From Cyanobium sp. Cruz CV13-4-11 (lineage in GTDB: Bacteria; Cyanobacteriota; Cyanobacteriia; PCC-6307; Cyanobiaceae), in contig NZ_JAGQCH010000025.1 of the NCBI RefSeq assembly GCF_024346055.1, forward strand, positions 1 to 42,681: 42,681 bases of DNA, in the 5' to 3' direction. Both the position numbers and the translations under genes were made by a program. The notes beneath the pieces are model-generated. The model was not told where the DNA came from. It saw only the letters and a program-made list of their open reading frames with translations, and searched no databases. Within the stretch, counting starts at the first letter, position 1. The number at the start of each line of letters is the position of its first letter. This document shows, in pieces, positions 1,187 through 42,681 of the stretch.

Positions 1187-1260
1187 CGGGGCGTGGCGCA
1201 GTTTGGTAGCGCGGGTGCTTTGGGAGCACTAGGTCGCAGGTTCGAATCCTGTCGCCCCGA
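1187..1260 (+). tRNA. tRNA-Pro (anticodon TGG)
   Basis: Cloverleaf seen directly: acceptor stem CGGGGCG (1187-1193) pairs with CGCCCCG (1253-1259) and discriminator A1260. The anticodon stem 1214-1218/1226-1230 encloses loop TTTGGGA with anticodon TGG at 1221-1223. The T arm GCAGG-TTCGAATC-CTGTC is canonical. CCA is not encoded. The 3' ends of tRNA genes are favoured integration targets for tyrosine recombinases, and the phage-like genes begin just downstream, so this is the likely left attachment site, although I found no duplicated 3' end in the window. Confidence 0.97.
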
Positions 1261-12931: not shown

Positions 12932-14698
12932 ATGCCAACCGCCACCAGCCTCATCGATGCCTCCTCTCGCACTCGGGAGCCCCTGCAGGCCAGCACGAGC
13001 TCCTCTGGTGCTCCCACAGGCGGCTCAGGAGGTCACGGGGGCTTCTGCGGTCTACTGCTCGACCCCGCTGCCGATCCCTGGGGCGACGCCGGCTTGCTCG
13101 GCTTCCCCACGGGGGACGACGACACGCCCCCGCCAGTCCCCCAGTCCTTGCGGGACTTCATCGCCGCCGCCTACCCCCGCTACGGCTTCCATCGCTGGGC
13201 GGAGCTGCTGATCGAGCGGCTGCAGGCCGTCGCTGATGGGGAACTGAGCCGCCTGATCGTCACCTGTCCGCCGCGGCTGGGGAAATCGCTGCTGATCTCC
13301 AAGCTCTTCCCGGCGTACTTCATCCAGCGCCACCCGCAGCTGTTCTGCGCCATCGCCTCCTACTCGGCCGAGCTGGCCTACGCCCACAGCCGCGAGGCCC
13401 GCCACTACTACCGCCTCACCGGCAACCCGCTCTCCAAGGATTCGGCGGCCGTGGGGAACTGGCTCACCCCAGAGCGGGGCGGTTGCATTGCAGCGGGGGT
13501 GAATGGACCGTTCACGGGCAAGGGCTACAGCCTGGGGATCATCGACGACCCGTACAAGGGCCCAGGTGATGCCTCCTCGCGGGTGATCCGCGAGCGGCTG
13601 ATCGACTGGCTGCGCAGCGTCTGGCTGACCCGGGCCGAACCTGCGGAGGTGGCGGATGAGGCCGGCACGATCCAGCGGAACCTGTCGGCGCAGGTGATCG
13701 TGCTGACCCGCTGGGACCACCAGGACGTGGTGGCCTGGCTGCTGGAGCAGGAGCTGGGGGAGGCGCCGCAGCACTGGCATGTGCTCGATCTGCCGGCGAT
13801 CGCGGAGCCGATCAAGGATCGCCCCCGCTTCCCGGCCACCTGCACGCTGGTGCCCGACTGGCGCCAGCCAGGCGAGGCGCTGTGCCCGGAACGGTTCCCA
13901 CTGCCGGAACTGCTCAAGATCCGGACCCGGCTGGGCAGCTACTGGTGGAATGCCCTTTATCAGCAGCGACCGAGCCCAGCGGAAGGGCTGCTGTTCCGCA
14001 AGGGTTGGATCCAGCCGCCGCTGCCCGGCGTCCCTGGTCGCCCCAAGCGGTACGCGCCGCTTGTGCTGAGCTGTGACCTGAGCTTCAAGGACGGCAAGGA
14101 CAACGACCCCTGCGGCTTCTGCCTGCTGGGCCTGCTGGAGCCGGAGCGCAGCCCGCTGCAAGAAGCGCGCCGCCAGGGGTTGGTGCTGGCCACCAATGCT
14201 GGCCTCGCCCATCGCTCTGGTCAGCACGCCGCTGAGGGGGCGAATGCCCCCGATCCCTGGGCGGAGCTGCAGATCGAGGTGCTCTGGGCGCACCGGCAGA
14301 AGCTGGATCTGCCGGGCGTGATCCGCTTCCTGCTGGCCTCGCTCGGTTCACTGGAGCGGCAGGGCCTCAGGCCCGATGCGGTCCTGATCGAAGACGCCGC
14401 CAATGGCCCGGCGGTGTGCCAGCTGCTGCGGCGCCAGGTGCCGGGCCTGATCGCGATCCCTCCGAAGGGCAGCAAGGCCTCCCGCGCCCATGCCGTGGCT
14501 CCGCTAGTGGAGGCGGGCCAGGTGCGCTTCCACCCCCGCTCTGATTCCCTGGTCGAGGAGATGCTCGCGTTCTCGCCCCGCGGCGGCATTGACGACCAGG
14601 TGGATGCCTTCTGCCAGGGGGTGCTGTGGATCGAGCAGCGCTACTGGCGCGGCCGTGGCAGCAGCCAGGCGCCGGTGCCGATGGTGTTCTCCCGCTGA
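12932..14698 (+). CDS. Terminase large subunit (ATPase and nuclease)
   Basis: 588 aa, the normal size. The ATPase half has PPRLGKS (113-119, Walker A) and LGIIDDP (Walker B, D205-D206). The RNase H-like nuclease half has CDLSFKDG (about 380), LIEDAANG (about 485) and DDQVDAF (about 553), the three acidic clusters that cut concatemers. All motor and nuclease residues seem present, so packaging should be functional. The first about 70 residues are low complexity. It is followed 3 bp later by the sigma-like gene. This is the strongest single proof of a head-packaging element. Confidence 0.95.
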   Translation: MPTATSLIDASSRTREPLQASTSSSGAPTGGSGGHGGFCGLLLDPAADPWGDAGLLGFPTGDDDTPPPVPQSLRDFIAAAYPRYGFHRWAELLIERLQAVADGELSRLIVTCPPRLGKSLLISKLFPAYFIQRHPQLFCAIASYSAELAYAHSREARHYYRLTGNPLSKDSAAVGNWLTPERGGCIAAGVNGPFTGKGYSLGIIDDPYKGPGDASSRVIRERLIDWLRSVWLTRAEPAEVADEAGTIQRNLSAQVIVLTRWDHQDVVAWLLEQELGEAPQHWHVLDLPAIAEPIKDRPRFPATCTLVPDWRQPGEALCPERFPLPELLKIRTRLGSYWWNALYQQRPSPAEGLLFRKGWIQPPLPGVPGRPKRYAPLVLSCDLSFKDGKDNDPCGFCLLGLLEPERSPLQEARRQGLVLATNAGLAHRSGQHAAEGANAPDPWAELQIEVLWAHRQKLDLPGVIRFLLASLGSLERQGLRPDAVLIEDAANGPAVCQLLRRQVPGLIAIPPKGSKASRAHAVAPLVEAGQVRFHPRSDSLVEEMLAFSPRGGIDDQVDAFCQGVLWIEQRYWRGRGSSQAPVPMVFSR

Positions 14699-14701
14699 AC
14701 C

Positions 14702-15325
14702 ATGACCACCACCCTGCAACGGCAAGCAAGGTTCCACGGCGATCTGCTGGTGGGGGGCGAGCAGCAAGCCCAGCTGCTGCTGCCCCTCTGGCACCGCCCC
14801 ACGTCACCCAGGCGGCGGAGGCCACGGCCAGAGATCAACAGCGCTGTGCAGCTGGTGCTGGCCTTCCCGCCACCACCCAGGGTGCTGCGCCGCCGGCGCC
14901 AGCGGCCCCGACATTGCCACAGCGCCGCCAATGAGCTGGCGATGCAGCACCTGGACATCGCCGACAAGGTGGCCGCCAACCTCTCACGTCGTACCGGCCA
15001 TCCGATTGAGGATCTGCGCCAGATCGCGATGATGGGCATCATCGAGGCCTCTCGTCGCTATTCGCCTGAGCGCGGTCCGTTCCGGCCTTATGCCCGCACC
15101 TACGCCAATGGCGAGGTCTATCACTTCTTGAGGGATAAGGGCTTTCTGATTAAGGTGCCGGCTTCCTGGCGTGAACTGCATGCGCGGGGGCAGAAGCTGC
15201 TCAGGTTGGGGCAGGCAGCGGGTGAGGTCCCAGAGCGACTTGGGGTCAGTTCGGAGCGGTGGCGGGAGATTGTGGAGGCCTGCAGTCAGCGGGTGGTGGC
15301 GATGGAGGTTGTGGAATTGGATTGA
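14702..15325 (+). CDS. Sigma-70-like factor with regions 2-3 but no region 4
   Basis: 207 aa. Residues about 80-160 form a sigma region 2: NELAMQHLDIADKVAANL, DLRQIAMMGIIEASRRYSPE, FRPYARTYANGEVYHFLRDK, followed by a region-3-like ERLGVSSERWREIVEAC. The protein stops at VVAMEVVELD, where region 4 (the -35 binder) would begin. The first 75 residues are Arg/Pro-rich. It is co-transcribed with the terminase genes, so it may direct late transcription or act as an anti-host factor. Whether the missing region 4 is native or caused by the adjacent cargo insertion is open. Confidence 0.8.
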   Translation: MTTTLQRQARFHGDLLVGGEQQAQLLLPLWHRPTSPRRRRPRPEINSAVQLVLAFPPPPRVLRRRRQRPRHCHSAANELAMQHLDIADKVAANLSRRTGHPIEDLRQIAMMGIIEASRRYSPERGPFRPYARTYANGEVYHFLRDKGFLIKVPASWRELHARGQKLLRLGQAAGEVPERLGVSSERWREIVEACSQRVVAMEVVELD

Positions 15326-15400
15326 AGCTCATCATCACCCTCTACCAGAAGACATGGCAATCATGAAGAACCTATGGGCCGAATCGGGTGAATGATGTTG

Positions 15401-15976
15401 CTAGACCGCAATCTGCGAAAGAACCTTTGTTTCCCAGCATTCCATAGCCTCATTCAGGACAACCAGCGCATCATGTCGGCCTCCGCTTCTGGTTGCCACA
15501 GTGGCGTGGATTTTAACCATTTGTGGATCTTTGACCTGAAGGGTGATATCTGGCCCTGCGATGGCAATCGATTCAATGCATTCTTGCGGAGCATTTAAGC
15601 CGACATCAACCAGCTCAGCAAATTCGCCTGATCTGCTTTCGCGTAGATCGCCATGCTTCGCTCTGTTGGCAATGTCAGCGACAAACGTGAGGGCTTGGCA
15701 TCTATTTACTTCCTCTTCGACACCGTTGGCTCGTAGACCTTTTGTCACAAAGCAAGATTTGAGATAATCCTTGAGGCTCCAGGTCCAAATGAAGAGGTTT
15801 AGGAAGTCGTCTTCAAGTTGCTCTGGTGCCTTGACTCCAATTGCCCTGAAGTTGGTCATAAAGTCAGTCCCCGATGCCCAGTACGAGGTCTGATAGCCAC
15901 TCCCTGATGCGTCTCGCACTGCAGCGGAAGCCCGCTGGATCCGGCTTCTGATCGCGTCGAGGTCAGCAGGAGTCAT
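15401..15976 (-). CDS. Hypothetical cargo protein, 191 aa
   Basis: Not recognised. The start is placed at ATG 15976 (MTPADLDAIRSRIQRASAAV); TTG 16015 would add 13 residues. The middle is helical (LFIWTWSLKDYLKSCF, then IANRAKHGDL, a pattern seen in HEPN-like and related helical proteins, though the spacing is R-x2-H, not the usual R-x4-6-H). The C-terminus is beta-rich (IAGPDITLQVKDPQMVKIHA). Base composition is lower in GC than the flanking phage genes. It lies 97 bp downstream of the HNH gene on the same strand, probably one transcript, and opposite to the late operon. Confidence 0.7.
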   Translation of the reverse strand: MTPADLDAIRSRIQRASAAVRDASGSGYQTSYWASGTDFMTNFRAIGVKAPEQLEDDFLNLFIWTWSLKDYLKSCFVTKGLRANGVEEEVNRCQALTFVADIANRAKHGDLRESRSGEFAELVDVGLNAPQECIESIAIAGPDITLQVKDPQMVKIHATVATRSGGRHDALVVLNEAMECWETKVLSQIAV

Positions 15977-16055
15977 GTCTTTGGTGCCCAAACGCTGCCC
16001 CTGAGCTGCAGGCAAGGAGCTTGAGGTGGAGAAGCTGAGTGATGGTGGCGACCTT

Positions 16056-16073
16056 CCCCCTTGAGGGGGTTTT
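16056..16073. terminator. CCCCC-TTGA-GGGGG hairpin with TTTT between the two cargo genes
   Basis: 5-bp stem 16056-16060/16065-16069, loop TTGA, then TTTT (16070-16073) on the plus strand. Its T-run faces plus-strand transcription, so it might block read-through of the late transcript into antisense of the HNH gene. On the minus strand it would only be a weak pause between the cargo genes. Confidence 0.5.
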
Positions 16074-17638
16074 CAGGATTTGTATGAAATACTGCACTTG
16101 AAATCATCCTGTGGAACCCATTCGACAAAAATCAGATCACCCTTTTTCAAAGTAGATAGCTGGGCTTGAACATGAGGGAGAACATTGTCAAGCGTGATGA
16201 CCCTTGAAGGTAAAGCTATTCGCTCGCCAAAGACTTCCACTTCATCGGGACTGTGATCGACAATCTGTATAGTTATCGGCCGATCGATTTTTTGCAATAC
16301 GGTTGCAATTGCGTAATCATCGTCCACTATAAATTCGCATGTCGGATTACTCGAAATACGGTCTTCATTTAAAATCTGTCTGCCTTGGATAATATCTGCA
16401 ACCTCACTGACCTTTCGATGGTCGTCGGATGTATAAGAGAGCCTTGCCGTAAATGGAATATTCAATGAAAAATATTGAGACACGGTCCTGCAGCATGCTA
16501 TGTAATGCAGCAAGCTGGCAGTGTCAAGCACATACTCCCACTTATCCACGCATGTTCCCTTGCTAGCAAAAACTCTAGTTCCTGCCACCTCTAACGAGGT
16601 AAACATCTCCCAGCCTTCGGACATGCATTTAAACAAAGAGTCTAGTTTATGGAAGAATGGCAAAGATGCAATACTGACGCCTTCCCATTGATCGAAGCCA
16701 AGGGACATAGTTATGTTGACTCTATCATCATTTGCATCAAATGACCTCTGATAATTCAAATTAAAAAGATTGTTGCACGCATGACCTTCAAAGGTAAATG
16801 ATTTAGTGCCGAAGGAAATGACGCCTTGTATATCATCAAAAGTCTCCACTCGAGACATATCTGCTTGGGCAAGCCATAGCTTCTGAGTTGCCTGCAGCTT
16901 TGGAGAAGAAATGCTTAGCGTACCGTCTGCATTTTCTAGCAGTTCCTTTAGCAGAGCTGAGCCTTCTATCGTTATCAACTCTGATTCGATCTCTAAGTCT
17001 TTGCCATGCTCAAATAGCAATTGATACTTCTCGAGATAATGTCTTACGCTATCGCCGCTGATTCTCATTGAACATTCGACGTTTTCTTTCGCGTAGATTC
17101 CAATTGAAGTTGTGCCGTCACGATATGCAGTCATTACTTGAAAGCGCGGATCGAGGTTTTCCAGTGACCTTTGACTAGCCTGATGGACATTGGATATAGC
17201 ATCCGCTAGGTAGGTCTTTGGGAGGCCGGTTAGCGCAGCCGTAACAGTATCAATTGCATCACCTTTGCCAGGCAACTTCTTCCCCAGCTCCGCTCTAGCG
17301 GCTTCTTCGGCTTGATTCTTCCAGTCTTTTAATTTCTCTGCAGAGTACCTATTTGTGTCTCTGTCGATATCAATTGAACAATTACTGCAGAGCCAGATGG
17401 CATTGTCGATAGACTTCCGTTCCTCGGCGCTCATATTGCTGTCATATCTAGGCCCGCCCGGTGAGGCTGCGCAAATATGGGCAGCTACACCTATGTTGTT
17501 TACTTTCTGGTTGTTCGAAGGTGCCGATGTTGGGACGCGGCAGTCTGGATTCGAGCACCTGTGCGCAACTCTGGCTTTGAGTGTCTCAATTGTTTTTGAA
17601 GCAAAATCATCTCTGGCCAAACTGATCCCCCGAGACAA
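16073..17638 (-). CDS. HNH-domain protein with large uncharacterised C-terminal region
   Basis: 521 aa. Residues about 25-115 form an HNH-type module: CSNPDC (28-33), GVAAHICAASPGGPRYD, then NAIWLCSNCSIDIDRD and a closing LKDWKNQAEEAAR helix. This module occurs as the nuclease end of several phage-defence proteins. The usual last His is replaced (CSIDID). The remaining 400 residues match nothing I recognise; they look like alternating beta-rich modules and could be a sensor. DNA is strikingly AT-richer than the phage genes on both sides. No ATG near the N-terminus: TTG 17638 or the TTG six codons on. A defence role is inference. Confidence 0.75.
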   Translation of the reverse strand: MSRGISLARDDFASKTIETLKARVAHRCSNPDCRVPTSAPSNNQKVNNIGVAAHICAASPGGPRYDSNMSAEERKSIDNAIWLCSNCSIDIDRDTNRYSAEKLKDWKNQAEEAARAELGKKLPGKGDAIDTVTAALTGLPKTYLADAISNVHQASQRSLENLDPRFQVMTAYRDGTTSIGIYAKENVECSMRISGDSVRHYLEKYQLLFEHGKDLEIESELITIEGSALLKELLENADGTLSISSPKLQATQKLWLAQADMSRVETFDDIQGVISFGTKSFTFEGHACNNLFNLNYQRSFDANDDRVNITMSLGFDQWEGVSIASLPFFHKLDSLFKCMSEGWEMFTSLEVAGTRVFASKGTCVDKWEYVLDTASLLHYIACCRTVSQYFSLNIPFTARLSYTSDDHRKVSEVADIIQGRQILNEDRISSNPTCEFIVDDDYAIATVLQKIDRPITIQIVDHSPDEVEVFGERIALPSRVITLDNVLPHVQAQLSTLKKGDLIFVEWVPQDDFKCSISYKS

Positions 17639-17656
17639 AGGCCTACTACTCTTGCA

Positions 17657-17697
17657 ATACTAACTTTCTCTTCGATGGTTCCGGGAACGACGGAACC
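17657..17697 (-). promoter_or_regulatory. Putative promoter/operator of the HNH gene
   Basis: TAGTAT (minus strand, 17657-17662) is a TANNNT -10 about 20 bp before the TTG start. An inverted repeat GGTTCC (17677-17682) / GGAACC (17692-17697) covers the -35 region, and TTCCGGGAA lies inside it. This suggests repressor control of the cargo genes. Confidence 0.4.
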
Positions 17698-17713
17698 CGC
17701 TCCACTCGTTTTA

Positions 17714-17824
17714 GAGAACCACTTCGACTGTGCCCAGGCTGAGGGCTGAAACTCAGAATCGCACAAGGACCCTTCGACCAACTCCTCCAGCGATAGCCAT
17801 GGTTCACTGGTCCGAGAACCACTT
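17714..17824. repeat. 11-bp direct repeat GAGAACCACTT, copies exactly 100 bp apart
   Basis: Copies at 17714-17724 and 17814-17824 in the gene-free 250 bp between the HNH gene and the portal gene. No coding function is seen. They may be traces of the insertion of the cargo genes or binding sites; significance is unproven. Confidence 0.6.
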
Positions 17825-17889
17825 GTTAGTCCAGCTACACAGGCCCGAATAATCCTGGTGGCAAAAGCAAGCAGCCCGGTCCGCTGCGC

Positions 17890-19479
17890 GTGCATCCAGC
17901 CCCCTCTCCCCCCTGGACCCAGCATCCCAGCCTGACCGCTCTGCAGCCCTCCCTGCAGATCGCCGCCGACTGCTGGAACCTCCTCTCCGCCCATGACGGC
18001 AGCAGCCGTCTGCAGGTGTACCTGCCCCAGGGGGAGCGGGAGCCCCAGGGTGCCTATGAGCGAAGGCTTGCTGCCGCCCGCCCCTCAGGGTTCTTCCGCG
18101 ATGCCCTGCGCACCTATGCCGGGATGCTCAGCCGGGGGAGCTGGCTGAACCTCCCAGCCACTCTGGCGACGGTGCTGACCGATGTGGATGGCCGGGGCAC
18201 GGACCTGGGCGTCTTCCTCGCCTCTGCCGATCTGCTCGTCCTCCGTGACGGGGCAGCCTTGGTGTTGGTGCTTCCCCCCGAGCACAGCTGGCCCAGTGAG
18301 GGGGACCGCCAGGAGGCTCTGCGCCGGGGGGATCGGCTGTCGCTGCCCCGGCTGCAGCTGGTGCCCCGGGCCGATGCCCTCACCTGGGAACTACCCTCCA
18401 GCCATGGGTTGCCAAGCAGGATCCACTGGCGGGAACCCCGCCACCAACCGCTTCAGCCTGTGGAGCCCGGTAGTGAGGCGGCGGTGCGCGAGCAGATCGC
18501 CTCGCTGCTCGGCGATGCCGATGCCCCCGACCGCTGGAGTTACCGGAGCCTGCATCTCACCGAGGCCGAGGGCCAGGCCACGGGCATGGAGGTGTGCCTG
18601 CATCCGGTGACGGCCGACCCCAGTGAGCCCAGTGGCTGGCGATGCGATCCGGCCTCCTCTACCCGCTATCCAGGGCTGATCCGGTTGCCGGCCTGCTGGT
18701 ACACCTCCGATGGTTCGGCCTTTGGCGACGGGGACCTGCCCCACTTGGGCCTTGCCTACCAGTACCTCAATCACTTCCGCTGCAAGAGCGAGTACGAGGA
18801 ACTCCTCTCCCGCACGGCTCTGCCGGTGGGGGTGCGCAAGGGGATGGTCGACGCCCTGGGGAACAGCACAGCCGGCCCGGTGGTGCTGGGCCCGAACACC
18901 TGCATGGACCTGCCGGCGGATGCGTCCTTCGAGTTCGTGGAGATCCGGGCGCGTTCGCTCGCCGAACACCGGGCCTGGCTGGAGAGCCTCGACGAGACCA
19001 TGCGCCGCGATGCCCTGATCCCCAGCAGCAGCGGTGGCGCCGCCCGCACCGAGCTGGAGATCAGCCTGACCGCCAGCCAGAGCTATGCGCTGCTCCAGTC
19101 GCTGGCGATCCAGAAGGCCTCGCTGTTCTCCACCCTGCTGGAGCACTGGGTGTCGCTCACTGGCGAAACCCTCGATCCCGGCGCCGGCCTGCAGGTGTCG
19201 GTGAGTCCGTTGGCGCCGCCGATTCAGGCCCAGCCCAAGGTGGGTGAGTGGATCGAGCTCTACGACCGGGGCGTGATCACCAGGGAGGAGCTGCGCCACC
19301 AGCTGACGCTGGCAACGGCGCAGTCGCTGTCGTCGCCGTCGCTGCAGGTTCCGGTGGCAGGGATGCACTCGGAGCCAGCTCCTCCGGCCTCTGCACCTCT
19401 GGCTGGTGATGGAGCCCCGCTGACCACAGAGCCCAGGACGACAGCCAGGTCACGGCTCCGGCGGCAACAGGGGGCATGA
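17890..19479 (+). CDS. Portal protein, DUF4055-like
   Basis: 529 aa. The N-terminus fits DUF4055 phage portals: YLPQGEREPQGAYERRLAAA followed by GFFRDALRTYAGMLSRGSW (about residues 38-85). The centre holds the wing and stem parts (PHLGLAYQYLNHFRCKSEYE, AWLESLDETMRRDALI), and the C-terminal helical barrel ends in a disordered Arg-rich tail. The portal ring is the DNA gate and motor docking site. The start is GTG 17890. Terminase normally lies directly upstream; here the HNH cargo separates them. The next gene overlaps by ATGA. Confidence 0.85.
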   Translation: MHPAPSPPWTQHPSLTALQPSLQIAADCWNLLSAHDGSSRLQVYLPQGEREPQGAYERRLAAARPSGFFRDALRTYAGMLSRGSWLNLPATLATVLTDVDGRGTDLGVFLASADLLVLRDGAALVLVLPPEHSWPSEGDRQEALRRGDRLSLPRLQLVPRADALTWELPSSHGLPSRIHWREPRHQPLQPVEPGSEAAVREQIASLLGDADAPDRWSYRSLHLTEAEGQATGMEVCLHPVTADPSEPSGWRCDPASSTRYPGLIRLPACWYTSDGSAFGDGDLPHLGLAYQYLNHFRCKSEYEELLSRTALPVGVRKGMVDALGNSTAGPVVLGPNTCMDLPADASFEFVEIRARSLAEHRAWLESLDETMRRDALIPSSSGGAARTELEISLTASQSYALLQSLAIQKASLFSTLLEHWVSLTGETLDPGAGLQVSVSPLAPPIQAQPKVGEWIELYDRGVITREELRHQLTLATAQSLSSPSLQVPVAGMHSEPAPPASAPLAGDGAPLTTEPRTTARSRLRRQQGA

Positions 19480-36496: not shown

Positions 36497-37588
36497 ATGG
36501 CGACCACTCCATCCACACCTCAAGCAGGCTCACGGCGGCGGCGTGAGCGCGATGCCTTCAGCGACAAGGAAGCCGCCAAGATGCTTGGCATCCCGGTCAC
36601 CAAGCTCTACCGGATCTGTGAGTTCTTCGATTCCGATCCTGACGATGCCTGGGATCTGATCGAGGGAGAGTTCTTCGAGTACGAACCGGGTCAGGCCCGC
36701 AAGCGCCGCTTCTATGAGGAGGGCGTAATGGCGATCGCCAAGTATCTGGAGGAGACCGAGGGCGGCAGTTTCCTGGCTCGGCTCAAGGAGTTCTTCACCC
36801 ATCACCGGGCTCGGGTGACCCGTGCCCTGGTGCAACGCCGCATCATCCAGGTGACGCAGGATCGCTCCACCCTGGTGATCAAGGGTGATCTGGTGTTTCT
36901 GCAGCAGCGCTCGGTGGTGCGGGTGCTGGGCACCAACGGCAAGGGGATGAGCGGCACCCTGCGCCGGATCGAAGAGGAGAGCGCCGGTCTCGATGGCGCC
37001 GAAGGCCTGGAGATCGACGTGCACTTCGCCGATTTCGACGACGTGGAGGGGCGCCACTGGAGCCAGCGCGGCATCGCCCGGCTCGCTCGCACAATGCACG
37101 AGCGGGGCCGCATCACCAAAGCCCGCAAGGCCTGGGTGAAGGCCGTGGCCGATGTGGCGGAGGACTGCTTCGAGGTGCAGCGCAAGGTGCTGGAGAGCCA
37201 TGAGGCCCGGGTGAAGGCTGCGATGGAGCGTGCACGGAACAAGGCCAAGGCCTGCGCGGTGACGCAGCAGAAACCCAATGCCGCGGATCAAAACCCGATC
37301 GAGCTGGAGGCCCATCACCTGTTCGATGCCGCCACACGACCCGATCTGGCGGCCTTGGAGGAGAACCTGCTGGTGATCAGCTCAGCCCTGCACCGCAACT
37401 TCCACAAGTGGATGGGCAATCGGCCCTGCGAACCCAAGGACTTCGTGGATTACCTGCTGCGCAACGAGCTCACCCACTTCGAGGGCAGCCCCAGCACCCG
37501 TACCCGCCAGGAGCAGCGCCAGCAGAAGCTGATCCACCGCCTGGAGCTGCTGCAGGCCCGCTACGAAGGAAACAGGCTGCTCTACTGA
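36497..37588 (+). CDS. HNH-type nuclease-like protein, partner of the J-domain gene
   Basis: 363 aa. N-terminus: MerR/HTH-like SDKEAAKMLGIPVTKLYRI (about 23-41) followed by an acidic helix. A middle region with VIKGDLVFLQQRSVVRVLGT and IDVHFADFDDVEGRHWSQRG is unassigned. The C-terminal about 268-310 reads LEAHHLFDAATRPDLAALEE, NLLVISSALHRNFHKWMG, an HNH-like core (His pair, Asn, His) as in several cyanobacterial and phage-defence-linked proteins. Co-transcribed with the J-domain gene (2-bp gap) and ending tail-to-tail with the HEPN gene. A two-gene defence or regulatory module is my inference. Confidence 0.75.
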   Translation: MATTPSTPQAGSRRRRERDAFSDKEAAKMLGIPVTKLYRICEFFDSDPDDAWDLIEGEFFEYEPGQARKRRFYEEGVMAIAKYLEETEGGSFLARLKEFFTHHRARVTRALVQRRIIQVTQDRSTLVIKGDLVFLQQRSVVRVLGTNGKGMSGTLRRIEEESAGLDGAEGLEIDVHFADFDDVEGRHWSQRGIARLARTMHERGRITKARKAWVKAVADVAEDCFEVQRKVLESHEARVKAAMERARNKAKACAVTQQKPNAADQNPIELEAHHLFDAATRPDLAALEENLLVISSALHRNFHKWMGNRPCEPKDFVDYLLRNELTHFEGSPSTRTRQEQRQQKLIHRLELLQARYEGNRLLY

Positions 37589-38205
37589 GTCAAGCCGGCG
37601 CGTTGCGTGATTCCTGTCTCCAACGTCATCGTCAACGAGGGCTGCAGCGGCCGCACCGTGCTGGCGCCAGTCTCCAGAAAGGCCACCAGGATCGTGATCA
37701 GCAGCACGAAGTCCGCCAGACCTGGATCGTTCTCCAGTTGGCTGGCCTCCCCCCGCTCTGCCATGTGCTTCTGGAGAATCAACTGCATCGGCTCCCAGAG
37801 CACATTGCGCCTTGCCAGCGCGACGCTCTCCCGCAGGCGGTCGCGGTAGGGAGGATCCGCCAGCTGCACCTCCGAGGTGGAGTGGGCGAAGGCATTCCGT
37901 ACCCGCCGAAGATTGTGGAGCGACTGCTCGACGGCGCCATCGATCAGCCCAAGCCTCGCCGCCAGGGCGATCTTGGCCCCGAACGACCCCAGCGGCCGAT
38001 CGGTGTGGAACAGGGACTCGCTACCGCGCGGTGGCGCCAGGGCTGCCTTGAGTAACGCCTCCAGGGCTGCGTCCACCCGGGCCACGCCCACCAGAACAGC
38101 GCCACGCCCCCGTTCGCGCAGCATCCCCAGAGCCACGCTGCGGGCCTCTTCGGCCGCCGCCTCAATCCAGTCGGGCAGGAAGGGCTCCAGGTCTGATGCG
38201 CTCAC
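37582..38205 (-). CDS. HEPN/MltR-like protein downstream of hsdR
   Basis: 207 aa. Residues 65-110 match the MltR/HEPN-like family: LFHTDRPLGSFGAKIALAAR, LGLID, and LHNLRRVRNAFAHST with R103-x4-H108, the HEPN RNase motif. A long C-terminal helix contains FVLLITILVAFLE. MltR was named for mannitol repression, while HEPN proteins are often toxins or RNases in defence islands. It lies 61 bp downstream of hsdR on the same strand, so it is likely an accessory to the type I system. Confidence 0.75.
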   Translation of the reverse strand: MSASDLEPFLPDWIEAAAEEARSVALGMLRERGRGAVLVGVARVDAALEALLKAALAPPRGSESLFHTDRPLGSFGAKIALAARLGLIDGAVEQSLHNLRRVRNAFAHSTSEVQLADPPYRDRLRESVALARRNVLWEPMQLILQKHMAERGEASQLENDPGLADFVLLITILVAFLETGASTVRPLQPSLTMTLETGITQRAGLTQ

Positions 38206-38266
38206 GACGGGGCCGATTCAGGGTCTGCATCACCCCTGAGGCTGACATGGCTCAGAGACCGGCCCC

Positions 38267-41200
38267 TCAGCCAGCGGGCGCATAGACGCTCTGGTCTCGT
38301 TCGGGGTAAGCCTGCTCGATGTGAGCGAACACGGCCTCGCACTTCTGCTGGTACAGCTCCGGTGTGTAGGCGCGAGGCAAGCCGATGTCGAGTGCTTCTT
38401 CAATGACGACCTTGAGCTTGGCCCTGGCATCAAACTTCTGCTGCCAGTTGAGCACCAGCAGCTCCTTGATCCGCTCCACCAGCTCCCGGGCCGACTGCTT
38501 GACCTTGGCGCGGTCGCTGTCGGACAGATCCGGTGCGGACTGCAGCAGGATGTCGAACATCGCCAGCTCCTCCTCGCTGAGGTTCTCGCGGATGTGGCGC
38601 TGCTGCTCCTGACTGAGCTGCATGCTGAGCTGCAGCAGCTGCTTGTAGACCTCCTCGACGCTGCGGCTGCCGGCGTTGTAGCTGGCGATCAGGGCCTCGA
38701 ACTTTTCGCGGAAGTCGGCGCGGGTGGGGTTGAGCTGCACCATCCGGGCGAGGTGAGCCGCGATCAGGGCCTTGAGTTCCTCCAGCTCTGTCTTCTTGTT
38801 CTTCTTCTGCTTGAACTTGTCGGCCAGCGCCTGGAAGTCGATCTTGGAGAGGTCGATGCTGGGCGGGCCCTGGTCGCGGATTGCGATGCCAGTGATCGAC
38901 TGATCAAGCACCTGACCGATCTGGCTCATCACGGCGCTGATGTCGGGCGGGTTGGGGTTGAGCTTCAGGCGGATGGAGGCCGCGATGCTGTTGAGCGCGC
39001 CGACTGAGGCCGCAAACTCCTGGGCAGCGGGGTCGGGCTTGATCGCAGCGTGCAGCAGTTGCACCAGACGCTGCTGCTCCTGGAACCTTTGCCTGAGCGG
39101 CTCCGGCGCGATCAAGGCCTCGACGGCATCGTCGATCAGCTGCAGGCGCTGCATGCCGTCCGTCTGGGCATGGATCGCGGCGATGTCGACCTGCTGCTCC
39201 GCGCAGAAGTGAACGGCGTCCGTCAGCACCTGCCGCAGCTGATCCACCAGCACGGCCTTGTCCTGGGTGGGCTTGGCCCCGCCGCCATTGCGCCCGCCAT
39301 AGAGGGCCAGCGCCTTCTCCAGGGAGGCGAACACGTTGGCGTAGTCGACGATCAGGCCGCTGTGCTTGCCGGGGAAGACGCGGTTCGCCCTGGCGATCGT
39401 CTGCATCAGGGTGTGGTTTCGCATCGGCTTGTCGAGATAGAGCGTTGAGCAGCTCGGCGCATCGAAACCGGTCAGCCACATGGCGCAGACGAACACCAGC
39501 CGCAGCGGATCGGTGGGGTCTTTGAAGCGTTGATCCAGCGGCGGCTCGGACGTCGTGAGCCGGCGGCGGTGGGGTTCAATGTCGAGACCCAAAGCCGCCA
39601 TGTCGGCGATCTCGTTCTGGGCGGCCGAGACGATCACCGCCATGTCGGTGCTGGTGAGGATGTGCAACCGCTCGCGCAGCTCCTCCCCGTCCTCAGAGGG
39701 CTCCAGCGGCAGCTGCTCCACTAGGGCGCGCACCCGCTCGGTTTCCTCCTGCCAATGGCGCTGCACCTTGTCGTGCATGCGCAGGGTGGTGGCCTTGTCG
39801 ATCGAGATCGCGATCGCCTTGCCCATGAACCCCCGGCCGAGGAAGTGGCGCACGATGTCGCGGGCGATCGTTTCGAGCCGGTCGTCCCTGGTGATGATGT
39901 GGTATTGACGACCCAGCTCCCGTTCGAGCTTCTTCTCCTCCTCGCCGTCGAGATCGGCGGCCTCGATCACTGCGTAGATGTCGTCGTTGAGATCGGGATT
40001 GACCAGCTGCAGTTCAGGCGTGCGGTTCTCGTAGAACAACGGCACGGTGGCCCCGTCTTCCACCGCCTGCTGGAAGTCGTAGATCGAGACGTACTCACCG
40101 AAGACCTCGCGGGTGCGCTCCTCGCCATCGATCAACGGCGTACCCGTGAAGGCGGTGAACAACGCCTTGGGTAAGGCGGTCCGCATGTTCATGGCCAGGG
40201 TGTCGTACTGGCTGCGGTGGGCCTCATCGGTGATCACCACCACGTCGGTTCGATCACAAAGCAGCTCGGGGATGCGGAACTTCTGGATCAGGGTGAAGAC
40301 GTAGCGGTGGTTGCCGCGCAGCAGCTCTGCGAGCTGGGCGCCGCTGCCCGCGTGGCACTGATCGCCCTCGGCCTCGGACACCACGCCAGCGGCCTTGAAC
40401 GTCTCGGCGATCTGCTCATCGAGGTCGGTGCGATCGGTGACGATCACGAAGGTCCAGTCGCCGGGCACCTTGCGCTGGATCTTCTGGCTGTAGAAGCCCA
40501 TCGCGTAGCTCTTGCCGCTGCCCTGGGTCTGCCAGAACACCCCCGCCCGGCCATGGCCGCGTCGGCGTGCCTCGAGGGTGGCGGCGATGGCGTTGTTGAC
40601 CCCGATGAACTGGTGGTTCTGGGCGATAATCTTGATCAGCCCGCCCTTGCTGTCACTGAACAGGATGAAGTTCTCGACGTAGTCGAGCAGGCGCTTGGGC
40701 TGGCAGACACCACGCAGCAACACCTCCAGCGACACGCGCCTGGGTTCGTCCTCGCTTTCGATCCGCTTCCACTCAAAGAAGCGCTCCCAGTCGGCGCTCA
40801 GCGAGCCGATGCGGCTGGCGGTGCCGTTGGAGGCGATCAGGAAGGCATTGCTCCAGAACAGCTGCGGGATCGCAGCCTTGTAGTGGCGGAGGTTGTCATC
40901 GAAGGCTGCGCGGGCTGAGACGCCGGGCTTCTTGAACTCGAATACCACCAGCGGCAGGCCGTTCACGAAGCCCACAAGATCAGGCAAGCACTTGCTGAGA
41001 TCCCCCTGGATCGTGAACTGGTTGACCGCAAGCCAGTCGTTTTCTGAGGGTCGGTCCCAGTCGACGACGCGCAGCCGCACCTTGCTCTGGCCGCCCCGTT
41101 CCAGGTCAGGCACGGACACCAGCACGCCGTCCTTGAGCAGGCGGTACACCTCGCGGTTGGCAGCCACCAGGCCCATGGCAGAGCGGTTGCGGCTGAGCTC

Positions 41201-41431
41201 CTCAATGGCTGCATCGATCGCCTGCGGCGGTTGGCCTGGATTCAGACGCTCCAGCGCGGCCCGCAGGCGCGGCAGCAACACCACCTCGCGGCGATCCCGG
41301 CGTCCAAGGCTGCCGCCCTCCGGCGCGAAGGTTTCCTCCAGACCGCAAGCTGTGTTCCAGCCCAGCTCAGACAGCAGCGCCAGGGCGGGCTGCTCCACCA
41401 GATGGTCTTCGTTGTAGGGGTTGGGAGTCAT
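38267..41431 (-). CDS. hsdR: Type I restriction enzyme, R subunit
   Basis: 1054 aa, normal HsdR length. PD-(D/E)XK nuclease: PDLVGFVNGLPLVVFEFKK with D151, E165, K167. Translocase: Walker A QGSGKS (303-308), DEAH (402-405), AFTGTPLIDG (motif III) and DAPSCSTLYLDKPM / MQTIARANRVFPGKHSG (motif VI region). The C-terminal part is helical for binding HsdM/HsdS. All active residues appear intact, so it should translocate and cut unmodified DNA. ATG 41431. hsdS lies upstream on the same strand (42129 onward); hsdM must be outside the window. Confidence 0.97.
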   Translation of the reverse strand: MTPNPYNEDHLVEQPALALLSELGWNTACGLEETFAPEGGSLGRRDRREVVLLPRLRAALERLNPGQPPQAIDAAIEELSRNRSAMGLVAANREVYRLLKDGVLVSVPDLERGGQSKVRLRVVDWDRPSENDWLAVNQFTIQGDLSKCLPDLVGFVNGLPLVVFEFKKPGVSARAAFDDNLRHYKAAIPQLFWSNAFLIASNGTASRIGSLSADWERFFEWKRIESEDEPRRVSLEVLLRGVCQPKRLLDYVENFILFSDSKGGLIKIIAQNHQFIGVNNAIAATLEARRRGHGRAGVFWQTQGSGKSYAMGFYSQKIQRKVPGDWTFVIVTDRTDLDEQIAETFKAAGVVSEAEGDQCHAGSGAQLAELLRGNHRYVFTLIQKFRIPELLCDRTDVVVITDEAHRSQYDTLAMNMRTALPKALFTAFTGTPLIDGEERTREVFGEYVSIYDFQQAVEDGATVPLFYENRTPELQLVNPDLNDDIYAVIEAADLDGEEEKKLERELGRQYHIITRDDRLETIARDIVRHFLGRGFMGKAIAISIDKATTLRMHDKVQRHWQEETERVRALVEQLPLEPSEDGEELRERLHILTSTDMAVIVSAAQNEIADMAALGLDIEPHRRRLTTSEPPLDQRFKDPTDPLRLVFVCAMWLTGFDAPSCSTLYLDKPMRNHTLMQTIARANRVFPGKHSGLIVDYANVFASLEKALALYGGRNGGGAKPTQDKAVLVDQLRQVLTDAVHFCAEQQVDIAAIHAQTDGMQRLQLIDDAVEALIAPEPLRQRFQEQQRLVQLLHAAIKPDPAAQEFAASVGALNSIAASIRLKLNPNPPDISAVMSQIGQVLDQSITGIAIRDQGPPSIDLSKIDFQALADKFKQKKNKKTELEELKALIAAHLARMVQLNPTRADFREKFEALIASYNAGSRSVEEVYKQLLQLSMQLSQEQQRHIRENLSEEELAMFDILLQSAPDLSDSDRAKVKQSARELVERIKELLVLNWQQKFDARAKLKVVIEEALDIGLPRAYTPELYQQKCEAVFAHIEQAYPERDQSVYAPAG

Positions 41432-41514
41432 GGCATCGATGCGCCTCCGCAGCCGAAGCGGATTGGAAACGTCATCAGATGATGCCTAGAGTGATGCGAG
41501 CCCAGGGCGGAAGC

Positions 41515-41709
41515 ATGCGCACCACCGTGACGCTCGACGACGAACTGCTGGCCAGGGCCGAGCAGCTGTGCGGAAATCTCGAACGCAGCGCCCTGCTCAA
41601 GGAAGCCCTGCGGGCCCTGGTGCAACGGGAAAGCGCGAAACGCCTGGCGGCACTGGGCGGCAGCGAACCTGAGCTGGAGCCGATCCCCCGTCGTCAGAGC
41701 GCGGCGTGA
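41515..41709 (+). CDS. vapB: VapB-type antitoxin between hsdS and hsdR
   Basis: 64 aa from ATG 41515: RTTVTLDDELLARAEQLCG and RSALLKEALRALVQRESAKR form the RHH domain. The tail has a PIPRRQSAA ending. Two in-frame ATGs upstream (41479, 41482) would add non-conserved residues. It overlaps its toxin as GTGA. TCATC-A-GATGA (41472-41482) and a TAGAGT -10 candidate lie just upstream, so it is probably autoregulated. Confidence 0.9.
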   Translation: MRTTVTLDDELLARAEQLCGNLERSALLKEALRALVQRESAKRLAALGGSEPELEPIPRRQSAA

Positions 41710-42083
41710 TCCTGGTTGACACCTCCGTCTGGGTGGAGCATCTGCGCCATGGCCTGCCTCGCCTCGCCATGTTCCTGCAGGAAGGGGAAGTGCTGATCCA
41801 TCCCTCGGTGATCGGTGAACTGGCCTGCGGCAATCTGCGCAACCGATCCCAGGTGCTGGAGCTGCTGCAGGGCCTGCCAGCGGCGACGGTGGCCAGCGAC
41901 GCGGAAGTGCTGCTACTGATCGAGGGCGACCGGCTGATGGGCCGTGGGATTGGCTACATCGACGCTCACCTGTTGGCCTCTGCCCGATTGAGCCACTGCT
42001 GCCTGTGGACCCAGGATCGACGCCTGGCAGCCGTGGCCAATGAGCAAGGACTGGCCAAACCACAGGCAGAAGACCTGAAGTAA
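41706..42083 (+). CDS. vapC: VapC-type PIN-domain toxin between hsdS and hsdR
   Basis: 125 aa, GTG start at 41706 overlapping the antitoxin stop (41707-41709). MILVDTSVWVEHLRHG carries D5; IGELACGNLRNRS has the Glu of motif II; IGYIDAHLLASARLSHC carries the third Asp; LWTQDRRLAAVA has the last Asp. The RNase site is complete. Different subfamily from the vapC at 25316. It is transcribed against the hsd genes, so it is not part of their transcript. Confidence 0.93.
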   Translation: MILVDTSVWVEHLRHGLPRLAMFLQEGEVLIHPSVIGELACGNLRNRSQVLELLQGLPAATVASDAEVLLLIEGDRLMGRGIGYIDAHLLASARLSHCCLWTQDRRLAAVANEQGLAKPQAEDLK

Positions 42084-42128
42084 CAGGCAACTGAGATGTC
42101 GCCCGTATCGATCTGGCCGCTCGCGATG

Positions 42129-42681
42129 TCATGGCTCAGGCAACTCCTCCACATCGATCTGACCGGAGAGCAGACGGGGGAGCAAGATGTCACGCGCGAA
42201 TCGGAGGTTTTGAACCTGACGCAGCAAGACTTCGCGCTGCAAGTGAATGCTGCCTGCAATCTGCCCGTAGCGACTCATGAGCGCGGCAGGCGGCAAAGTA
42301 ATTTGAAAAGCACTTATCGTATCCTTGGTCAGCGCTTCGCGAGTAGCTCCGCCTTGCGCGAAAGCCAGAAGCTGCTGCTTGTGAAAATCACTGTTGATTG
42401 CATCCAGCAAATAAAAAGGGCTAACCTTCGTCTTGTCAGCGCGGACAATCGCCACATGCTGATTGACCCGCGCTGGCAGCAGATGTGAGGGAACCATGGC
42501 GCAACGAGCAACCGACGCACCGGTGATATTTAGCAATACATCCTCTTCCTCAACTTGTATGTGTTCAGGGGTCGGGACGTCCCCCGCGGGACTGCATTTC
42601 TGACAGCTCATCGCTGAGCGATCAAGAAGCAGTGCTCTGTGCTGCTGATTCAGGGATCGGGCAGCAGTGTCGGCATCACCC
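42129..42681 (-). CDS. hsdS: Type I restriction specificity subunit, C-terminal part
   Basis: About 183 codons are open to the right edge without a stop (23 codons upstream of the first visible ATG at 42611). The visible part is half of a target recognition domain: VEEEDVLLNITGASVARCAM, RVNQHVAIVRADKTKV, NSDFHKQQLLAFAQGGATRE, ALTKDTISAFQITLPP, then the conserved coiled coil LRFARDILLPRLLSGQID that spaces the two domains. HsdS decides the DNA site for the HsdM/HsdR complex. The gene is cut by the window, so the specificity and integrity are unknown. Confidence 0.9.
   Translation of the reverse strand, partial: GDADTAARSLNQQHRALLLDRSAMSCQKCSPAGDVPTPEHIQVEEEDVLLNITGASVARCAMVPSHLLPARVNQHVAIVRADKTKVSPFYLLDAINSDFHKQQLLAFAQGGATREALTKDTISAFQITLPPAALMSRYGQIAGSIHLQREVLLRQVQNLRFARDILLPRLLSGQIDVEELPEP

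What the first reader, a model, noticed from the sequence alone, without database searches (positions are those of the whole stretch)
15401..17697. AT-richer two-gene cargo (HNH-fusion plus 191-aa protein) inside the late operon
The block lies opposite to the late genes, exactly between sigma/terminase and portal, where phage gene order is normally uninterrupted. Its base composition clearly differs from both sides. The first protein couples a defence-type HNH module to 400 residues that I cannot assign; the second looks helical with a KH motif. It has its own promoter-like -10 and inverted repeat. A prophage-borne anti-phage system is the most attractive reading.
Basis: partly seen in the sequence, partly recalled or inferred. 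Interest (0 to 1): 0.8.

Follow-up and report, generated by a model that had tools for sequence, protein, structure and literature searches.

The report
Phage-borne integron dock with defence cassettes
The odd low-GC block in this cyanobacterial phage region looks like a small integron array without its integrase: a docking site plus at least one gene cassette, at a position where related phages carry different, often defence-like, genes, so phages may swap such genes with the bacterial host's own integrons.

Summary
In detail: two reverse-strand genes (GC 43-52%, flanks about 70%) lie between a sigma-70-type gene and portal. They are not a two-gene system but look like integron cassettes. (1) An attC of the host genome's class separates them (model E=2e-9). 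(2) The leader upstream of the HNH gene is an attI homologue: an HMM built from phage leaders hits 8 nt after the intI stop in 4 of 8 host-genus integrons fetched. (3) A cassette's first 7 nt should complement its attC's R'' box: exact in 5 of 8 loci not used to define the leader; the window fails. (4) In 11 relatives an eroded intI 3' end precedes the leader. The spot is a cargo hotspot: 52 non-redundant loci (window included), 24 with attI and/or attC. Of 40 picked cargo proteins 13 match defence models, in 12 loci, 7 of them with attI/attC. No IntI was found in the window or 14 phage records; the host genus is integron-rich. Best reading: an integrase-less phage integron, loaded by host IntI in trans (inferred). 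Gene 1 is an HNH fusion, probably anti-phage; gene 2 is unassigned. Integrons in phages are known; this family-wide attI hotspot is a new variant.

The parts
17664..17832 (-). attI-like leader (docking site); crossover G|TT between 17664 and 17663
   Evidence: Leader HMM (the window is one of its 7 training rows); homologous host sites lie 8 nt 3' of the intI stop in 4 of 8 loci fetched; alignment
17811..17820 (-). repeat 1, GGTTCTCGGA (IntI-binding-like; the name is by analogy, recalled)
   Evidence: spacing 100 and 31; host attI-like sites 99-101 and 31
17711..17720 (-). repeat 2, GGTTCTCTAA
17680..17689 (-). repeat 3, CGTTCCCGGA
15993..17663 (-). gene cassette 1 (from G|TTAGTA, placed by inspection, to the G of the attC core)
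   Evidence: in this locus the R'' box does not complement the start (3 mismatches)
16073..17638 (-). gene 1: HNH-nuclease fusion protein (probable start TTG 17620, 515 aa)
15987..16079 (-). attC site of cassette 1 (left arm diverged)
   Evidence: 45.1 bits, E=2.2e-9, not in the model's training set
15401..15976 (-). gene 2: 191-aa protein, unassigned; begins 17 nt after the attC core
   Evidence: no homologues found
15326..15402 (-). possible degenerate terminal attC: arms CATCATTCACCC / GGGTGATGATG with one extrahelical T, ending at the sigma stop
   Evidence: (z=-1.38, 18 of 200 shuffles fold as well): inconclusive
14702..15325 (+). left flank: sigma-70 region 2 gene; distal end of the docking site (TTCAATCC on the - strand)
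   Evidence: the last attC abuts this point in L030 and in several other loci
17890..19479 (+). right flank: portal gene

Best explanation
The block is an integrase-less integron in the late region of a probably temperate cyanobacterial phage family (relatives lie inside long host contigs). An ancestor captured a piece of a host chromosomal integron (intI-attI-cassettes, with intI pointing the same way as the cassettes) between the sigma and portal genes, in the opposite direction. The intI gene eroded; the attI and the cassettes stayed. Host IntI, acting in trans while the prophage sits in an integron-rich host, exchanges cassettes at this attI, so phages carry different small sets of genes, some of them defence-like. 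In this window cassette 1 is an HNH-nuclease fusion, most likely a single-protein anti-phage nuclease whose 400-residue C-terminal part senses infection; gene 2, a 191-aa protein, is a separate unit, probably a second cassette. Shown by sequence: attC, attI homology, cassette boundaries in relatives, cargo turnover, intI remnants, no IntI found in cis. Inferred: trans action of host IntI (my odds 0.6), defence function of gene 1 (0.55), benefit to the lysogen.
For: attC in the window, same class as host arrays (10 such sites in the host genome including this one; 35 hits of a second attC class, some overlapping). At E<=1, R1 has 10 hits outside its training set (not counting a reverse-strand echo of an L030 site), all 10 in the gap, which is 13% of the DNA searched. 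With both models 30 distinct sites, all on the - strand; 28 in the gap, one beside a second sigma end, one at a contig start upstream of portal. The leader HMM built from phage loci hits 8 nt after the intI stop in 4 of 8 host loci fetched, E<=9e-14. First-cassette start equals the complement of R'' exactly in 11 of 15 loci, 5 of 8 if the loci used to define the leader are left out. IntI C-terminal remnant just before the leader in 11 loci. IntI over the family cut-off in 28 of 42 genus genomes, in 0 of 14 control genomes; 0 of 14 phage records have any match; none on the window's contig. A gene pair of one hotspot (L040) is 75-79% identical to a pair that lies between two attCs in the window's own genome.
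Against: 28 of 52 non-redundant hotspot loci show neither leader (E<=1e-3) nor attC with my models, and most of these still carry cargo, so other routes (homologous exchange, other attC classes, decay) must exist. Of the 12 loci whose cargo matches defence models, 5 (L028, L029, L034, L038, L045) show neither. In the window the attC left arm has diverged and its R'' does not complement the cassette start (3 mismatches), so the cassette may no longer excise. Six of the 11 exact R''/start matches are in loci where I had used that very match to place the boundary. The leader was not found 3' of intI in 4 of the 8 host loci, nor at the own genome's intact C50 and C2 intI genes. The window attC alone does not fold better than shuffles; the first attC class shows no covariation; the second model was trained on sites chosen for complementary arms in gaps, which biases. 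Gene 2's own attC is unproven. Anti-phage function is untested.
Confidence: 0.82

Rival explanations
1. The attI and cassettes are relics: cargo now moves between phages only by homologous recombination through the conserved sigma and portal flanks (ordinary prophage mosaicism), and no IntI acts on phage DNA.
For: 28 of 52 loci have neither attI nor attC detected, most of them with cargo; 5 of 12 defence-matching loci are among them; in the window the R''/start match is lost; no IntI match in 14 phage records.
Against: Exact R''/start complementarity in several loci with different cassettes at the same base (5 of 8 independent); close relatives (93% portal identity, L048, L049) share the leader but no cargo with the window; IntI over cut-off in 28 of 42 genus genomes.
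Confidence: 0.3
2. Two-gene anti-phage or toxin-antitoxin system: HNH nuclease plus 191-aa partner, acquired as a unit.
For: Same strand, adjacent, both low in GC; HNH domain related to CBASS effectors.
Against: An attC lies between them; no gene-2 relative in the plasmid collection that holds three long homologues of gene 1; gene 2 has no homologues elsewhere searched.
Confidence: 0.05
3. The cassettes are passengers with no role for phage or host (silent or decaying), as many integron cassettes may be.
For: Promoter-like sites no better than chance; 27 of 40 cargo proteins picked have no PADLOC match at E<=1e-3; some cargo is not defence-like (Questin-oxidase-like, DNA-alkylation-repair-like).
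Against: Both reading frames are open; the HNH cysteines and histidine are invariant in 4 aligned sequences; 12 other loci have a cargo match to defence models; one long homologue of gene 1 sits inside a type I restriction-modification locus.
Confidence: 0.2

Closest known systems
Integrons and CALINs in phage genomes (Qi et al. 2023, PMC9892861; abstract and passages read)
   Same: attC sites, attI and cassettes in phage genomes; Shewanella prophage M16-3 has a CALIN with its own attI near tail, scaffold and terminase genes; five of six phage attCs tested were recombined by IntI1
   Different: There, 21 different phages; 'cyanophage', 'Synechococcus' and 'hotspot' do not occur in the main text. 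Here one phage family with the attI at one fixed position, intI remnants of graded length, and different cargo
Prophage and satellite defence hotspots (Rousset et al. 2022, PMC9122126; search listing and start of abstract only; author name recalled)
   Same: Fixed position with variable anti-phage-type genes
   Different: Here, in about half the loci, integron recombination sites mark the cargo, so a means of exchange can be read from the sequence
Chromosomal integrons of cyanobacteria (intI reported in Cyanobacteria in PMC2426708; passages read)
   Same: IntI, attC and attI classes of the host genus
   Different: In the phage loci no intact intI was seen, and the array lies in the late region
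Cassette insertion at attG sites (Loot et al. 2024; seen only as a reference in PMC11023631)
   Same: Cassettes outside a canonical integron
   Different: The target here is an attI homologue, not a generic site
CBASS HNH-SAVED effector (PDB 8ysq, 8fm1)
   Same: N-terminal HNH domain
   Different: No SAVED domain detected, no CD-NTase beside it

Membership tests
Complete integron | intact intI in cis | tested here: not met
   No IntI match on the window's contig; no remnant at E<=1e-3 in the window; 0 of 14 phage records, which may be fragments
Integron array | attI next to the first cassette | tested here: met
   Leader homologous to sites 8 nt 3' of the intI stop in 4 of 8 host loci; repeat spacing 100/31
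Integron array | attC with paired arms and extrahelical bases | tested here: met
   E=2.2e-9; but left arm diverged with several unpaired positions, and the single-sequence fold is not better than shuffles
Integron array | cassette start complements the R'' box of its attC | tested here: not met
   Window: 3 mismatches; other loci: 11 of 14 exact, of which 6 served to place the boundary
CALIN | two or more attC sites (as used in PMC9892861) | tested here: inconclusive
   One certain attC, one doubtful; L030, L048, L055, L081, L082, L088, L092 have two or more
Prophage defence hotspot | different cargo at one conserved position in related phages | tested here: met
   52 non-redundant loci; cargo shared between loci only in a few cases
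Prophage defence hotspot | cargo shown to block phages | not testable with these tools
   PADLOC matches only
CBASS HNH-SAVED effector | HNH domain | tested here: met
CBASS HNH-SAVED effector | SAVED sensor domain and neighbouring CD-NTase | tested here: not met
   PADLOC SAVED-HNH models match no further than residue 132; no Pfam domain above cut-off; neighbours are sigma, gene 2 and portal

The most novel reading that the evidence does not exclude
A whole family of temperate cyanophages keeps an integrase-less attI at one fixed place as a loading dock: host IntI works in trans on the prophage, so each lysogen can take defence cassettes from the host's integrons and carry them to new hosts, and the phage's 'moron' slot is filled by site-specific cassette recombination rather than by mosaic exchange alone.
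Probability: 0.5. Interest if true: 0.87.

Novelty: new variant of a known kind. Interest (0 to 1): 0.75.

Why it matters
How prophage defence hotspots acquire and swap their cargo is rarely visible in the sequence. Here recombination sites are still present in about half the loci, with the enzyme apparently left to the host, so the process can be tested directly. It links two reservoirs of defence genes, integrons and prophages, and offers a way to find unknown defence genes: read the cassettes at this phage attI.

Tried and rejected
Led nowhere: Rfam on 14500-18500 (none); relatives of gene 1 and gene 2 in viral contigs (none by the pattern scan); gene 2 in 300 family genomes (only its own) and plasmids (none); gene 2 was not searched in the annotated phage records. 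AlphaFold2 without alignment for both proteins failed (mean pLDDT 34 and 39), so no fold search was made. Pfam on both gave nothing above cut-off. Single-sequence folding of the window attC was not better than shuffles. The first attC class showed no covariation (358 of 500 shuffles paired at least as well), so it rests on sequence similarity. A second leader variant (L080, L088, L089) found no convincing host counterpart. A loose count of repeat triplets (80 in 2.67 Mb, true ones included, three mismatches allowed) says nothing about chance and is not used; only the spacings are.

Considered and dropped: random insertion at an attG-type site (the leader is homologous to host attI); an idea noted early that gene 2 was a native phage gene whose upstream frame the cassette had split (the 'frame' is the attI leader); a standalone CBASS effector (no SAVED domain, no CD-NTase). 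The arm scan is strand-symmetric, so its counts are not used for orientation; 14 gap sites against 25 in five times as much flank only hint at enrichment.

Rows dropped: nine redundant gap loci were removed before the 52 were counted. The portal alignment for the genome scan used 9 of 20 portals: one search failed on L037, and I then left out L037, L028 and L043. PADLOC was run on 40 cargo proteins picked by me, mostly long ones; one search counts 130 cargo ORFs of 80 aa or more in all 61 loci, redundant loci included. Host integron loci: 8 fetched of those listed.

Full report
What is there. Between a sigma-70-type gene (14702-15325, Sigma70_r2 E=2e-11) and portal (17890-19479) lie two reverse-strand genes in DNA of 43-52% GC, against about 70% on both sides. 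Gene 1 is 521 codons (17638-16073), gene 2 191 codons (15976-15401).

The first clue. A search of the window's own genome (3.41 Mb, 52 contigs) with this block found, besides itself, seven short matches, all to the stretch that separates the two genes. Aligned, these are attC sites of integron cassettes: two complementary arms with two extrahelical bases and a GTT core (the box names R'', R' and GTTRRRY are recalled integron terminology). The same genome has three IntI matches over the family's cut-off, 10 attCs of this class including the window's and 35 hits of a second attC class (some sites are hit by both). The window is the whole contig C18, which has no IntI match.

attC models. Model R1 was built from 8 host sites and 2 sites of phage locus L030. 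It finds the window site with E=2.2e-9 and one in L036 with E=3e-6, neither in the training set; two further matches there are at chance level (E=2.9 and 3.9). Over 67 genome loci (791 kb) it finds 8 sites at E<=1, best 3.5e-18, all 8 inside the sigma-portal gap and all on the minus strand. The gap is 13% of the DNA searched. A second class (model R2) was built from 11 sites found by an arm scan, taken from gaps only. Its pairs covary (94.6% of cells paired, 11 of 22 pairs with change on both sides, 0 of 500 shuffles as high on four of five measures, 1 of 500 on the fifth), but these sites were chosen for complementary arms. R2 adds 9 sites beyond its training set and beyond R1. In all 30 distinct sites, 28 in a gap; of the other two, L093's abuts a second sigma 3' end and L096's is at a contig start upstream of portal. 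Two plus-strand matches are echoes of minus-strand sites. The first class shows no covariation.

The docking site. In six loci the first cassette's start was placed through its attC, in the window by inspection; in the other loci examined there (L036, L051, L084, L105) no credible start was found. The roughly 170 nt upstream are conserved. An HMM of these seven leaders hits 30 places at E<=1e-3 in the 87 loci (7 of them training rows), all on the minus strand: 22 in annotated gaps, 8 elsewhere (7 in loci without a sigma-portal pair, 1 before a second portal-like copy in L067). I then fetched 8 integron loci with intact intI from other genomes of the host genus. In 4 of 8 the phage-built HMM hits 8 nt after the intI stop (E 2e-14 to 9e-14), and attC cassettes follow on the same strand. 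The leader is therefore an attI homologue, in an integron whose intI points the same way as its cassettes. In the other 4 loci, and at the own genome's intact intI genes on C50 and C2, it was not found 3' of intI; C35 of the own genome has it after a decayed intI. Host and phage share three GGTTCWCGGA-like repeats, spacing 99-101 and 31; the window has them at 17820, 17720 and 17689.

Cassette boundaries. A cassette inserted at attI should begin with the complement of its own attC's R'' box, found at its far end. In 15 loci with leader and attC (window included) the 7-nt start matches exactly in 11, across 0.8-3.3 kb. Six of these 11 are the loci where this match had served to place the boundary, so the independent count is 5 of 8 (L039, L048, L053, L055, L092 exact; L051 two mismatches; L074 and L093 no match found). 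The window fails (3 mismatches: its left arm has diverged). L030 shows the pattern well: leader, AACAAG|TTAGGC, HNH_5 gene, attC, second gene, attC, G|TTCAATCC at the sigma stop, though its second cassette's R'' is not matched.

Origin. Host IntI proteins match 14 of the 87 loci at E<=1e-3. In 11 of them (L055, L066, L067, L071, L080, L086, L088, L089, L092, L094, L111) the match ends at or near the IntI C-terminus just before a leader hit; it spans from 43 residues (L111) to residues 59-315 (L055). The hotspot is thus a truncated integron whose intI has eroded to different extents. None of 14 phage records has an IntI match (they may be fragments). In the host genus 28 of 42 genomes have IntI over the cut-off; 39 of 42 have some match, but weak matches also occur in all 14 control genomes, none over the cut-off. 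A gene pair in the L040 hotspot (one gene an antidote-type protein; no attC passed my models there) is 75-79% identical to a pair that lies between two attCs on contig C38 of the window's genome. L048 and L049, whose portals are 93% identical to the window's, share the leader but no cargo ORF with it.

Cargo. Sixty-one loci, window included, have both flanks; 52 are non-redundant, 19 with attC, 20 with leader, 24 with either, 28 with neither. PADLOC matches at E<=1e-3: 13 of 40 cargo proteins picked. With attI and/or attC in the locus: SEFIR (L036), NsnA-like (L039), PDC-S15 (L051), type IIG MmeI-like (L055), AbiGi (L093), HEC-01 (L086) and a marginal Avs4 match (L084, E=6.5e-4). With neither found: HamB-like helicase (L028), SduA (L029), AriA-like (L034), FRG/PDC-S15 (L038), IetA and IetS (L045). 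Control: 1 of 10 late genes of the window. Some cargo is not defence-like.

The window's genes. Gene 1 residues 12-121 match PDC-M68A (E=2e-27) and HNH-SAVED effector models, and PDB entries 9om4, 8ysq and, weakly, 8fm1; no Pfam model passes its cut-off. Long homologues occur on plasmids of Sulfuricurvum (97% covered, 34.5% identity), Acidovorax (83%) and Acinetobacter (80%); the first lies between subunit S and subunit R genes of a type I restriction-modification locus, the other two among other genes. The plasmid collection has no gene-2 relative at E<=0.01. The cysteines and the histidine of the HNH module are invariant in the four aligned sequences. In 41 other genomes of the host genus one has a clear HNH-domain match and one a weak match. 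Gene 2 has no relative in 299 other family genomes or, by pattern scan, in viral contigs. Structure prediction failed for both. Behind gene 2 a hairpin with attC-like arms ends at the sigma stop, but it is inconclusive.

Mechanism. Shown by sequence: attI homology, attC, cassette boundaries in relatives, turnover, intI erosion. Inferred: host IntI loads the prophage's attI in trans; cassette genes serve lysogen and phage, some as defence; gene 1 is a nuclease with a C-terminal sensor; the phage is temperate (several relatives lie in long host contigs, for example L056 in one of 348 kb and L079 in one of 292 kb). No promoter-like site above chance was found, so expression is open.

Relation to print. 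Searches (open-access PubMed Central only) gave one close paper, Qi et al. 2023 (PMC9892861; abstract and passages read): integron parts in 21 phages, including a Shewanella prophage CALIN with its own attI. Its main text has no 'cyanophage', 'Synechococcus' or 'hotspot'. Passages only were seen of PMC2426708, PMC3108266, PMC11023631, PMC8618304 and PMC11551772; PMC8618304 says that cassettes commonly carry restriction and other phage-related functions. Hence 'new variant of a known kind' rather than new in kind. Subscription papers and preprints were not searched.

Noticed in passing
own genome (C38, C43, C49, C51, C52 and other contigs): The host genome is integron-rich: 10 attCs of one class and 35 hits of another (some overlapping), 3 IntI matches over cut-off, scattered over many contigs.
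   Followed up: partly
L019 2149-2309 (-), own contig C51: A chromosomal attI-like site follows a long gene that looks subtilase-like by reading; the next cassette's start GTTCGAAG complements its attC; no IntI match on that contig. Possibly a second intI-less dock.
   Followed up: partly
L025 2760-3132, own contig C35: Decayed intI 3' end followed directly by the attI leader.
   Followed up: partly
L055 620-8001: Largest gap seen: an intI remnant (residues 59-315), attI leader, three attCs, a type IIG MmeI-like enzyme and a Questin-oxidase-like protein.
   Followed up: partly
L069 2-316 (-): IntI N-terminal residues 1-108 run off the contig end upstream of a portal relative; this phage may have an intact intI.
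   Followed up: no
window 16056-16073: The diverged attC left arm forms a CCCCC/GGGGG hairpin followed by TTTT in the + direction, terminator-like for late-operon read-through; the scan did not list it.
   Followed up: no
window 37582-42680: A reverse-strand gene with a DUF4145 match just below cut-off, then a gene that looks like type I restriction subunit R and a cut-off one that looks like subunit S (the last two by reading only), at the right end of the contig.
   Followed up: no
window 1187-1260: tRNA-Pro(TGG) gene near the left end, a possible attachment site.
   Followed up: no
L038, L039, L040, L074, L098 (sigma-proximal end of the gap): A conserved gene of about 150-180 aa recurs at the sigma end of the gap in these loci, 49-95% identical, inside a longer ORF in L098.
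   Followed up: no
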